Shown piece by piece: positions 35,817 through 41,386 of a stretch of 41,386 nucleotides of DNA. Origin of the DNA: Desulfurellales bacterium. Lineage in GTDB: Bacteria; Campylobacterota_A; Desulfurellia; Desulfurellales; Hippeaceae. Every line of letters begins with the position of its first letter. Within the stretch, counting starts at the first letter, position 1. A program made the position numbers and the translations under genes. A model generated the notes under the pieces. That model made no database searches and was not told the DNA's origin. It saw nothing but the letters and a program-made list of their open reading frames with translations. The DNA lies in contig JALWEJ010000044.1 in the NCBI GenBank assembly GCA_027014115.1, forward strand, positions 1-41,386. The letters are read 5' to 3'.

Positions 35817-35850
35817 TGTACTGCCCCCGCTTGTCAAGACAATTTTCTCT
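35817..35850 (+). repeat. left terminal inverted repeat of the IS3-family element
   Basis: Reads TGTACTGCCCCCGC, then TTGTCAAGACAATTTT. It pairs with the right end at 37167-37200, sharing TGCCCCCGC, AAGACA and ATTTT. Confidence 0.75.
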
Positions 35851-35898
35851 AATTTCTTATTCCCTCCTTTCTTGTTAAATAAAATTCAGTATTCTTCA

Positions 35899-36673
35899 TT
35901 ATGCAGCATCCGTTTTATTTAATTCCTGGGTGTATATTTTCATAGGGGGTTTATACCCTATGGATGAATGCAATCTCTTCCAATTATATGTCTTCATATA
36001 ATTGGAAATCCCAGCTCTTGCATCTTTTAGGGTTTCATACCTGCTTGGATAAACATTTTCCTGCTTTAGGCTTCTGAAGAATCTCTCCATATAGATATTA
36101 TCAAAGCATCTGCCCTTTGCATCCATTGAGATTGAGATATTGTGCTTTTTTAGAATCTCTGTTGTTCTATTTGACGTATATTGGCTACCCTGGTCTTAAA
36201 TTGAATATCTTGGGTGATTTGTATTTTTCCAAAGCTTCTTTAATTGTATCTGCAACAAGACTATCATCCATTGATGAGGATAGTTTATGTGATAAAACAG
36301 CCCTTGTTTTTAAATCCATAACAACACACAGATATGAAAAACCCCTGTTTAATCTAATGTATGTGATATCAGATACCCATACCTGATTGGGTTTTTCTAT
36401 ATCTATGTTTTTCAATAGATATGGATATGTTCTGTTGTTTTCATCCGGTAGGGTTTTAATATTAAGAAGTTTCATAAATCTTGTTATTTTTCTTTTACCG
36501 ACATTAAAACCTTTCTGTTTTAATTCGTGATACATACGTCTGTATCCGTAATAGGACTGGTCTGTATAGATTTTATCTATGGTATTCATTATCTCTATGT
36601 CTAATGCAGAAAGAGGACGTCCCTTTTTTATGTAATAAAGCGTAGAACGGTCTATATCAAGAAGCTCGCACTC
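35899..36673 (-). pseudogene. IS3-family transposase OrfB, frameshifted
   Basis: This is the DDE integrase half of the transposase. It begins with the conserved ECELLDIDRSTLYYIKKGRP and PLSALDIEIMNTID, then SYYGYRRMYHELKQKG. The first catalytic aspartate is in QVWVSDITYI. A one-base indel near 36195-36201 breaks the frame just before the second aspartate: the first frame ends at IFNLRPG, and the true continuation DQGSQYTSNRTTEIL is in the next frame. The catalytic glutamate is in DNIYMERFFRSLK, and the tail YNWKRLHSSIGYKPP is typical. All three catalytic residues survive in pieces, but the protein cannot be made. Confidence 0.9.
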
Positions 36674-37062
36674 ACCTGGTGATTGAAAGCCTGCCGCAGT
36701 TTGGGCAGGATAAGGATTTATTGAGATTGGACTCCACCAGGCTTTTTCTCTTACTCCAGTCCAAGCTCCTTAATTTTTTTAATACCCAATCCCTCTCTAT
36801 TGTGGTTTGTCCCAATGCTTTAGATAAAGCATCAATCTGGGATTCTTTTTCTTTTATCTCTTCTTTGTATTTCTTTATGCTAACAGCATTTTCAAATGCC
36901 AATGAGGCATTCTCCAAAAATTGTTTTTTCCACTGCTGGACTGATTTTGGCAGTATATCATACTTGGATGCAAGCTCATTTATTGTTGTATTACCCTCTA
37001 AGAGCTCTAAGATTGCTTTTGTTTTAAACTCGGGTGAGAAAATTCTTAAGCTTCTGACTCAT
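36672..37062 (-). pseudogene. IS3-family transposase OrfA, frameshifted
   Basis: This is the helix-turn-helix and leucine-zipper half. From the ATG at 37062 the protein starts MSQKLKNF, then an extra T in a T-run near 37040 shifts the frame. The continuation reads SPEFKTKAILELLEG, NELASKYDILPKSVQQWKKQ and a coiled coil with KEKESQIDALSKALGQ. It ends at a TGA at 36672-36674, where the orfB sequence continues in another frame. In live IS3 elements orfA and orfB are joined by programmed frameshifting at an A-rich site; the junction here has no such site, and the extra frameshifts argue for decay. Confidence 0.8.
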
Positions 37063-37166
37063 AAAATTTCCCAATTAAACTTAAATATAAATTCAAGAAC
37101 AGATAAGACAAGATGTAAAAACAATGAAGATTTCTCAAATCTTAACAGATTTGAGAACGAGATTGT

Positions 37167-37200
37167 TCAAAAATCTGTCTTAATTTGCGGGGGCATTATA
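37167..37200 (-). repeat. right terminal inverted repeat of the IS3-family element
   Basis: Read on the minus strand: TATAATGCCCCCGC, then AAATTAAGACAGATTTT. Its outer edge coincides with the start of the truncated CRISPR repeat. Confidence 0.75.
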
Positions 37201-38198
37201 CATAAACGGAAATAGTGCAATAATCTCCCAAATATAACACATCTAAATATTACAGAGAAAAGTTAGTCGTAATTCCCTTCATAAACGGAAATAGTGCAAT
37301 GTTGAAAAAGCAGTGGATGGGAAAGGTTATGTTAATGGTCGTAATTCCCTTCATAAACGGAAATAGTGCAATTGCCGAAGACCACCCTGCAGAATGCAGT
37401 TTTGTATATGAGTCGTAATTCCCTTCATAAACGGAAATAGTGCAATTAGAAACAAGGGAAGGCAACTATTACATTGCCCTCCGCCTATACGTCGTAATTC
37501 CCTTCATAAACGGAAATAGTGCAATTAGCTCGGCGGCTTTTTTTGTATGTGCAGGATGTCTTGCAGTCGTAATTCCCTTCATAAACGGAAATAGTGCAAT
37601 TATAGGTTTTTCTATTGGTATTCTTGTAAAAATTATAAGCCGGTCGTAATTCCCTTCATAAACGGAAATAGTGCAATGAAGCCGTCGGGCTTTTAGAGTA
37701 GTGAAATACTCTATTAGTCGTAATTCCCTTCATAAACGGAAATAGTGCAATGGAATAGTTGGTCTCAAACTTATGAGACCAAAATTGGTCGTAATTCCCT
37801 TCATAAACGGAAATAGTGCAATCACAACCGATGATGGTTATGTATGTGAATATTGTTATGAGAATAGTCGTAATTCCCTTCATAAACGGAAATAGTGCAA
37901 TCGTTTACCAAAAACGGTATAGAAGCTAGCGGGGCATTCGTCGTAATTCCCTTCATAAACGGAAATAGTGCAATATGGTTATTGAAGAGCAATTAAAGAA
38001 ATCGGAAGAGAAGTCGTAATTCCCTTCATAAACGGAAATAGTGCAATTTTCCAAAATACCAAATATAAATTATTTGTTACTATAAACGAGTCGTAATTCC
38101 CTTCATAAACGGAAATAGTGCAATTGATTGGTTGTATAACAATTACGATATTGCAACCTTTGTGTCGTAATTCCCTTCATAAACGGAAATAGTGCAAT

Positions 38199-38543
38199 TC
38201 TGAGCCTGAGAATACAGTGTATATAAACGGAGTAAGAGAGTCGTAATTCCCTTCATAAACGGAAATAGTGCAATTTTATAGAGAAGCAAATATTTATAAA
38301 CACGGACTGCATATTGTCGTAATTCCCTTCATAAACGGAAATAGTGCAATGGGTTTCCGTCACCCTCAAAGAAAAGCATTTGTGCTATACCGTCGTAATT
38401 CCCTTCATAAACGGAAATAGTGCAATTCTGAGCCTGAGAATACAGTGTATATAAACGGAGTAAGAGAGTCGTAATTCCCTTCATAAACGGAAATAGTGCA
38501 ATGGGTTTCCGTCACCCTCAAAGAAAAGCATTTGTGCTATACC
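38199..38543. repeat. duplicated spacer block inside the CRISPR array
   Basis: The 41-base spacer at 38199-38239 (starts TCTGAGCCTGAG) is repeated exactly at 38427-38467. The 41-base spacer at 38351-38391 (starts GGGTTTCCGTCA) is repeated exactly at 38503-38543. The spacer between the first pair (38275-38315) is present once. The order is A-B-C-A-C. Confidence 0.97.
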
Positions 38544-38804
38544 GTCGTAATTCCCTTCATAAACGGAAATAGTGCAATTAGACTATCAGCCCTTGCTTTA
38601 AAAATAGTTACTGTCTTAATCGGTCGTAATTCCCTTCATAAACGGAAATAGTGCAATGATAAAGATTCAGAAAATATCTTATGTCGGTAAGATAAAGTCG
38701 TAATTCCCTTCATAAACGGAAATAGTGCAATATCAGACCTAAATCAAGGTCTGATTGAAAAAAGGTTTTGTCGTAATTCCCTTCATAAACGGAAATAGTG
38801 CAAT

Positions 38805-38847
38805 TGTAAAAGCAGTTGAGAAAGAGTTTGGTTTACGACCTGACGCA
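38805..38847. repeat. spacer duplicated 30 units away, first copy
   Basis: This 43-base spacer (starts TGTAAAAGCAGTTGAG, ends CGACCTGACGCA) is identical to the one at 41070-41112. Confidence 0.97.
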
Positions 38848-41069
38848 GTCGTAATTCCCTTCATAAACGGAAATAGTGCAATAATCAAAAGATTTTATTA
38901 GAAAAGAGAGAGGGCGATTATTATATGTCGTAATTCCCTTCATAAACGGAAATAGTGCAATGGTATTAATGTTACGGGACATAGTAACAATTCTAATTTA
39001 AGTCGTAATTCCCTTCATAAACGGAAATAGTGCAATACAGTTTATAGGTGTCCGACACTCTACCTTGTGGAGATGGAGTCGTAATTCCCTTCATAAACGG
39101 AAATAGTGCAATAATGGTATACAATAAACTATGAAATGCTTGACAATATGGTCGTAATTCCCTTCATAAACGGAAATAGTGCAATTATCCAACTTGTAAT
39201 TACAATATAAGATGGACAGGATCTCCTGTCGTAATTCCCTTCATAAACGGAAATAGTGCAATTATGCTACGTATAGACTTTAAATTAAGCCAGGAAAAGA
39301 GGTCGTAATTCCCTTCATAAACGGAAATAGTGCAATCTTAATCCACTTAAAGCCTTGTAGAATGCAACACTTCTAGTCGTAATTCCCTTCATAAACGGAA
39401 ATAGTGCAATAGTGCTTGCAAGTTTGCGGCTTGTAGCAAGCACTCAACCTACCAAGTCGTAATTCCCTTCATAAACGGAAATAGTGCAATAGAAAGGTAT
39501 TGATTTGATTAAGGAAGCTTTGAGAAAAGCAGTCGTAATTCCCTTCATAAACGGAAATAGTGCAATAAAAGCAGGGTGATAAAATAGAACCCTGCACCGA
39601 CGACGAAGTCGTAATTCCCTTCATAAACGGAAATAGTGCAATGAAATGGATCATGCCCCAATAGGATATACTTGTCCACAAGTCGTAATTCCCTTCATAA
39701 ACGGAAATAGTGCAATAAGAAGGGGAATGTCCATTGACTTCAATGGACACAATATGGTCGTAATTCCCTTCATAAACGGAAATAGTGCAATGAAACTCTT
39801 GCCGCCTCAAAAACATTAAAAAGCATTAGTGATGTCGTAATTCCCTTCATAAACGGAAATAGTGCAATTGTCAAGAGTGTTGGAGTCATTACAGACTTCA
39901 ACGAATTTAGTCGTAATTCCCTTCATAAACGGAAATAGTGCAATCATTAAAAAGCATTAGTGATAACCACAGAATTGAAGCAATTAAAGTCGTAATTCCC
40001 TTCATAAACGGAAATAGTGCAATTATTCCCTGTGCAGGAAAAGATAGAACCTTGCCCCGGTCGTAATTCCCTTCATAAACGGAAATAGTGCAATTTGAAA
40101 AGTATCCGAAAGTGTTCTTTGAAAAAATTAAACCTAGTCGTAATTCCCTTCATAAACGGAAATAGTGCAATTTTAATATAACCCTTCAAGGGTTTAAAAA
40201 ATTGGGGAAAGTCGTAATTCCCTTCATAAACGGAAATAGTGCAATAGAAAGAGTAGATAGGTTTGTGGTTATTGAATTTATAGATAATGTCGTAATTCCC
40301 TTCATAAACGGAAATAGTGCAATGGTTTAGTTATGTTAAGTTTTGTTAGATTAGAAAGAGTCGTAATTCCCTTCATAAACGGAAATAGTGCAATCTAATT
40401 TGATAGGTTATGTAGAAATTACAACTAACTCCGTCGTAATTCCCTTCATAAACGGAAATAGTGCAATAAGCAAAGGCAAAAGGGTATACCGTTACAAAGG
40501 TATACGGTATAAGTCGTAATTCCCTTCATAAACGGAAATAGTGCAATATCTTGCATTTGCTCTATATGAGCAAAAGGATAGATTTGTCGTAATTCCCTTC
40601 ATAAACGGAAATAGTGCAATGTTCTCAAAGGAAGCAAAAATAAATGATATTATCATATCCTGTCGTAATTCCCTTCATAAACGGAAATAGTGCAATCGAA
40701 GGTATTCGGAGCAGTGAGCACATTTCAGAAATTGAAGGGTCGTAATTCCCTTCATAAACGGAAATAGTGCAATTTGCATTTGCTCTTTATGAGCAAAAGG
40801 ATAATTTGTCGTAATTCCCTTCATAAACGGAAATAGTGCAATCGACATAACCTACCCACAATCACCTATTCAAATTATACGTCGTAATTCCCTTCATAAA
40901 CGGAAATAGTGCAATTTGCTAAACAAATCTATAATATTCCAAAACACAAGATACAGTCGTAATTCCCTTCATAAACGGAAATAGTGCAATATTTACTTTT
41001 ATCTAAAAACACAAGCAAAAAGCAGGGGATATGTGTCGTAATTCCCTTCATAAACGGAAATAGTGCAAT

Positions 41070-41112
41070 TGTAAAAGCAGTTGAGAAAGAGTTTGGTTTA
41101 CGACCTGACGCA
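41070..41112. repeat. spacer duplicated 30 units away, second copy
   Basis: Exact copy of the spacer at 38805-38847. The neighbouring spacers on either side differ, so this is not a long block duplication. Confidence 0.97.
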
Positions 41113-41386
41113 GTCGTAATTCCCTTCATAAACGGAAATAGTGCAATAAAGAAACTTTATCAAGTAGTAGAAGATGCCTTGTTTAAGGCATGTCGTAATT
41201 CCCTTCATAAACGGAAATAGTGCAATAAGGGAATATTTGTAACAAGAGAAGGCAGATACACGTCGTAATTCCCTTCATAAACGGAAATAGTGCAATTCTT
41301 GCCTTGTAGCTTCAAAGGCATTGCGAGTTTTGCTGTCGTAATTCCCTTCATAAACGGAAATAGTGCAATAGAAAACTGATTTAAGT

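What the first reader, a model, noticed from the sequence alone, without database searches (positions are those of the whole stretch)
37222..41334. CRISPR spacers are overwhelmingly in one coding orientation, as expected for an RNA-targeting system
I translated every spacer by hand. Nearly all have a plus-strand frame that reads like real protein, for example EMDHAPIGYTCPQ (39643-39681), YPTCNYNIRWTGSP (39186-39227), RRGMSIDFNGHNM (39717-39756), FNITLQGFKKLGK (40172-40210) and DITYPQSPIQII (40843-40880). For the last one, all three reverse frames contain stops. Only about three spacers (38351-38391 with its copy, 39337-39375 and 41297-41334) look equally good or better on the minus strand. If crRNAs are made from the minus strand, as the ATTACGAC handle-like repeat end suggests, they would be antisense to target mRNAs. 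That is the orientation needed by type III or other RNA-guided RNA-cleaving systems, and could come from selection or from RNA-biased acquisition such as a reverse transcriptase-Cas1 adaptation module. An open frame over 13 codons is weak evidence alone; the strength is in the consistency and in the synonymous differences reported separately.
Basis: partly seen in the sequence, partly recalled or inferred. Interest (0 to 1): 0.8.

Follow-up and report, generated by a model that had tools for sequence, protein, structure and literature searches.

The report
Type III-A CRISPR array, mRNA-antisense spacers
This is the CRISPR memory bank of an RNA-sensing (type III-A) immune system in a sulfur bacterium of the family Desulfurellaceae: about nine in ten stored snippets face the way needed to pair with a virus's messenger RNA, which is expected for this kind of system, and an unexpected excess of them can fold into hairpins.

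Summary
Open frames alone show nothing (82 plus, 85 minus). A codon-phase model shows a strong bias: 43 of 52 unique spacers score as plus-strand coding (p=2e-6; estimated sense fraction 0.92, 95% 0.77-0.99). Type III-A arrays of family relatives agree (26:10); type I arrays of the family show none (25:28). The window lies in a Desulfurellaceae genome. The leader is on the right in relatives, so crRNAs come from the minus strand and are antisense to target mRNA. The genome carries csm4, csm5, csx20, card1 and cas6 on another contig; cas10, csm2, csm3 and the III-A cas1 are missing, probably in an assembly gap. The RNA-targeting reading is supported. The RT-Cas1 suggestion is not: no reverse transcriptase was found here, and cas1 at related loci has none. 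Selection for functional spacers is the likelier cause and is already documented for type III. No protospacer was found, so strand is inferred from coding signal. One unlisted feature is less ordinary: 11 of 52 spacers hold perfect stems of at least 7 bp (about 1.5 expected), noticed post hoc. Ordinary system; the hairpin excess deserves follow-up.

The parts
37201..41386 (-). CRISPR array: 55 perfect repeats plus one truncated, 55 complete spacers (52 unique); runs off the contig end. Transcribed on the minus strand (inferred).
   Evidence: leader on the right in relatives
37201..37221 (-). Leader-distal repeat, truncated (the ATTACGAC handle side is missing) at the end of an IS3-like element
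41335..41369 (-). Last repeat in the contig; as crRNA ATTGCACTATTTCCGTTTATGAAGGGAATTACGAC, with an 8-nt 3' end ATTACGAC resembling a type III 5' handle
   Evidence: the repeat of a Rhodothermus array beside a III-A operon also ends ATTACGAC
37447..37490 (+). Spacer ETREGNYYIALRLY, similar in the plus frame to 38883 (EKREGDYY) and 41227 (TREGRY)
38199..38239 (+). Spacer SEPENTVYINGVR (copy at 38427-38467), homologous to a G014 spacer SEPGQTVYMNGTR
38351..38391 (-). Spacer (copy at 38503-38543) encoding a dCTP-deaminase C-terminus on the minus strand (GIAQMLFFEGDGN): a true exception
39337..39375 (-). Spacer with the strongest minus-strand coding score (LLR -6.9)
39567..39607 (+). Spacer KQGDKIEPCTDDE with a 7-bp hairpin; similar to 40024-40059 (EKIEPCP)
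40548..40585 (+). Spacer LAFALYEQKDRF, homologous to 40774-40807; a 7-bp hairpin present in both
37752..37787 (.). Example of a hairpin spacer: 9-bp perfect stem, 6-nt loop (11 of 52 have stems of at least 7 bp)

Best explanation
The array feeds a type III-A (Csm) RNA-sensing system. A leader to the right (off the contig) drives transcription of the minus strand; Cas6 cuts in the repeats; each crRNA carries ATTACGAC plus a guide that is antisense to viral mRNA. The Csm complex, whose Csm4 and Csm5 are seen in this genome, binds the transcript, Cas10 makes cyclic oligoadenylate, Card1 is activated, and Csx20 probably removes the signal (these steps follow from what is known of the families). 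Spacers are taken from both strands of invading DNA by an RT-free Cas1-Cas2; cells with mRNA-antisense spacers survive, so the surviving array is strongly biased, with a minority of non-functional exceptions such as 38351. Shown: the array, the coding-strand bias, leader side and RT-free III-A loci in relatives, csm4/csm5/csx20/card1/cas6 in this genome. Inferred: that this array uses that csm operon, that cas10/csm2/csm3/cas1-cas2 sit in an assembly gap, and that selection is the cause.
For: Coding model 43:9, sense fraction 0.92; relatives' III-A arrays 26:10; type I arrays of the family 25:28; type III versus type I Fisher p=2e-4. In relatives' III-A and RT type III arrays, Shine-Dalgarno-ATG sites lie on the target-sense strand in 8 spacers and on the other strand in none. 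Homologous spacers share orientation and differ mostly at third codon positions. Leader conserved on the right in five arrays. G008:C56: array, leader, cas1, cas10, csm2, csm3, csm4, csm5, csx20-like, card1-like in order. Own genome: csm4, csm5, csx20, card1, cas6 at the end of contig C45. Selection, not acquisition, produced the bias in an RT-free type III system (PMC7515739); type III arrays in general prefer coding-strand targets (PMC8482600).
Against: No protospacer was found in phage records, in 7 pattern scans of IMG/VR, or in 25 genomes of the class, so gene strand is inferred. cas10, csm2 and csm3 were not found in this genome. Arrays of this repeat family can stand away from cas genes (G008:C82), so the link to C45 is not proven. 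At least one spacer (38351) has the wrong orientation for mRNA targeting.
Confidence: 0.75

Rival explanations
1. The bias arises at acquisition: Cas1-Cas2 prefers one DNA strand, for example the displaced coding strand during transcription, perhaps through single-strand hairpins, and inserts it in a fixed orientation.
For: Hairpins are enriched in these spacers. A review of type III-A adaptation reports a preference for DNA secondary structure (PMC9048733).
Against: Hairpin spacers are not detectably more biased than others (13:2 versus 56:17 over both III-A sets). Strand-neutral acquisition was found in an RT-free type III system (PMC7515739).
Confidence: 0.15
2. The spacers were copied from RNA by an RT-Cas1, possibly from RNA phages.
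For: RT-Cas1 and Cas6-RT-Cas1 occur in other genomes of the family, and those arrays are biased too (30:11). No DNA protospacers were found.
Against: No RVT_1 in this genome; RT-free Cas1 at the homologous III-A loci. Spacer 38351 comes from a dCTP-deaminase gene, which points to DNA. Spacer folding energy is symmetric between strands, and perfect stems are far commoner than in MS2 or AP205.
Confidence: 0.06
3. The bias is an artefact of purine-rich strands, or of one virus whose genes all point one way, rather than of mRNA targeting.
For: The plus strand is 56% purine. The number of source viruses is unknown.
Against: Composition shuffles do not reach the observed value. Similar bias in arrays of other genomes of the family and none in its type I arrays. 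A one-directional genome would still need consistent insertion orientation.
Confidence: 0.04

Closest known systems
Type III arrays in general (Vink et al. 2021, PMC8482600)
   Same: Spacers prefer the orientation that lets crRNAs pair with mRNA.
   Different: There the strand came from mapped protospacers; here from codon signal, since no protospacer was found.
Thermus thermophilus RT-free type III adaptation (Artamonova et al. 2020, PMC7515739)
   Same: RT-free Cas1 (in relatives here) and strong mRNA-antisense bias; selection shown as the cause.
   Different: Experimental; here selection is inferred.
Streptococcus thermophilus III-A adaptation (Zhang et al. 2021, as described in the review PMC9048733; the paper itself was not readable here)
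   Same: A link between III-A spacers and DNA hairpins.
   Different: Laboratory acquisition from plasmids and the host genome. Here the hairpin excess is in a native array, and 180 spacers from arrays beside III-A loci on plasmids of other taxa do not show it clearly (6 seen, about 3.3 expected).
RT-Cas1 type III systems of the same family (G005, G007)
   Same: Type III, same family, similar strand bias.
   Different: Cas1 fused to a reverse transcriptase; different repeats; no clear hairpin excess (2/41).

Membership tests
Type III-A (Csm) CRISPR-Cas | Csm4 and Csm5 present in the genome | tested here: met
   C45 proteins match TIGR01903 and TIGR01899 above cut-off
Type III-A (Csm) CRISPR-Cas | Cas10/Csm1, Csm2 and Csm3 present | tested here: inconclusive
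   Not found in this genome, but the csm operon is cut by the end of C45 about 100 bases before the csm4 start; all three are present at the homologous locus in G008
Type III-A (Csm) CRISPR-Cas | cOA-responsive ancillary effector | tested here: met
   Card1 CARF and endonuclease domains; Csx20
Type III-A (Csm) CRISPR-Cas | Array physically linked to the csm operon | tested here: inconclusive
   Different contigs here (C44, C45); linked in G008:C56, unlinked in G008:C82
Type III-A (Csm) CRISPR-Cas | crRNA antisense to target transcripts | tested here: met
   By coding signal and leader side, not by mapped protospacers
RT-Cas1 type III adaptation | Reverse transcriptase fused or next to Cas1 | tested here: not met
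   No RVT_1 hit in the genome; the III-A cas1 of this genome is missing from the assembly, relatives' copies are RT-free
Type I-B-like system of the same genome | Repeat shared with the window array | tested here: not met
   The repeat beside the C31 Cas1/Cas3 locus (TTTCAATACAAGGCTTGTGTCGGTTCAAT) is unrelated

The most novel reading that the evidence does not exclude
The III-A Cas1-Cas2 of this Desulfurellaceae clade preferentially captures inverted-repeat (hairpin) DNA, leaving a several-fold excess of hairpins in a native array: natural-array evidence for the structure preference reported in laboratory III-A adaptation.
Probability: 0.3. Interest if true: 0.6.

Novelty: new member of a known kind. 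Interest (0 to 1): 0.4.

Why it matters
The strand bias is a clean example, without any protospacer match, of reading RNA targeting from codon signal in spacers; the same test separates type III from type I arrays in one family and could be run on the many arrays whose targets are unknown. If the hairpin excess is real, it would let the substrate preference of type III-A adaptation be studied from natural arrays.

Tried and rejected
Counting open frames (no bias). Spacer search in phage records (only E=10 chance hits), in 25 genomes of the class (apart from 38351 versus dCTP-deaminase genes, short matches to conserved host genes read as chance), and 7 wobble-degenerate pattern scans of IMG/VR (none). 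RNA-phage origin of the hairpins: MS2 and AP205 fragments have stems of at least 7 bp in 3-4%, and folding energy is the same on both strands. Generality of the hairpin excess: not evident in arrays beside III-A loci on plasmids of other taxa. More arrays located by leader similarity gave only six further spacers.

Full report
What is there. The array spans 37201-41386 on a contig that ends inside it. It has 55 perfect 35-nt repeats, one truncated repeat at the left, 55 complete spacers and 52 unique ones of 34-45 nt. The repeat occurs nowhere else in the 1.72-Mb genome. Named relatives with a near-identical repeat are Desulfurellaceae or Desulfurellales metagenome assemblies.

Checking the observation. 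Counting open frames does not show a bias: 82 plus and 85 minus, and known gene fragments behave the same. Codon content does. A 3-periodic model trained on 195 kb of family genes (size) recognises the strand of 89% of held-out host fragments and 79% of T4 fragments of the same lengths. It assigns 43 of the 52 spacers to plus and 9 to minus (p=2e-6); the estimated sense fraction is 0.92 (0.77-0.99). Composition shuffles reach at most 40. Homologous spacers within the array, and one shared with G014, keep orientation, and where they differ do so mostly at third codon positions.

Controls. The same model gives 26:10 for III-A arrays of relatives, 30:11 for RT-Cas1 type III arrays, and 25:28 for type I arrays of the family, most of them from one array. 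In the relatives' and RT arrays, 8 spacers cover a Shine-Dalgarno and ATG on the target-sense strand and none on the other.

Which strand is transcribed. In five arrays of relatives with the same repeat orientation the flank to the right of the last repeat is conserved and is taken as the leader; in G008:C56 it lies between array and cas1. The window's left end has the truncated repeat. Transcription is therefore inferred to run on the minus strand, giving crRNAs that start ATTACGAC and are antisense to plus-strand messages.

Which system. Contig C45 of the genome ends in csm4, csm5, csx20, card1 and cas6. Cas10 and Csm2 were sought and not found; the only RAMP-family hit is csm5. In G008 an array with a repeat two bases different sits beside cas1, cas10, csm2-5 and the same ancillary genes. 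The simplest reading is a gap between C44 and C45, but G008 also has such an array away from cas genes. A separate type I-B-like locus with Cas1 and Cas3 lies on C31 with an unrelated repeat.

Why the bias. No reverse transcriptase was found in this genome, and the homologous III-A loci carry RT-free Cas1; RT-Cas1 occurs in two other genomes of the family. In Thermus, an RT-free type III system takes spacers from both strands and selection makes the bias (PMC7515739); type III arrays generally show it (PMC8482600). Selection is the best explanation, not a demonstrated one.

Hairpins. Eleven of 52 window spacers hold a perfect stem of at least 7 bp; about 1.5 are expected from dinucleotide shuffles, and 2.7-4% of genome fragments have one. 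Relatives' III-A spacers: 4 of 36, 0.8 expected; RT arrays 2 of 41; type I 1 of 53. Stem positions within spacers vary. This was noticed by eye and tested afterwards with a chosen threshold; two of the eleven are one homologous pair. It fits a reported preference of III-A adaptation for DNA secondary structure (PMC9048733), but arrays beside III-A loci on plasmids of other taxa do not show it clearly, so it may belong to this clade or to its viruses.

Limits. No protospacer was found. The strand claim therefore rests on coding signal, leader position in relatives, and homology.

Noticed in passing
window 35817-37200: IS3-like element (rve/HTH_21 fragment at 36185-36589) with probable inverted ends TGTACTGCCCCCGC and GCGGGGGCATTATA; its right end abuts and truncates the leader-distal repeat.
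   Followed up: partly
window 37222-41334: Excess of spacers with perfect stems of 7-9 bp (11 of 52); also in relatives' III-A arrays (4 of 36), not clearly in RT or type I arrays.
   Followed up: yes
window 38199-38543; 38805-38847 and 41070-41112: Spacer duplications: two spacers (38199, 38351) repeated in the same order shortly after, and one spacer repeated about 2.3 kb apart.
   Followed up: no
L045, L046, L047, L101, L146, L106: Spacers of relatives' type III arrays often cover a Shine-Dalgarno plus ATG (6 of 44 III-A, 2 of 41 RT), always on the target-sense strand; none in the window array.
   Followed up: partly
L107:2362-4971; L106:9287-11401: Cas6-RT-Cas1 fusion (G007) and RT-Cas1 beside a Cmr-type operon and a CARF nuclease (G005) in the same family.
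   Followed up: partly
L056:1462-2316: A stand-alone reverse transcriptase in G008 beside a formylglycine-enzyme-like protein: looks like a diversity-generating retroelement (by eye only).
   Followed up: no
L034:9987-18364: Type I-B-like locus on C31 of this genome: Cas1, Cas3 and a short array with repeat TTTCAATACAAGGCTTGTGTCGGTTCAAT.
   Followed up: partly
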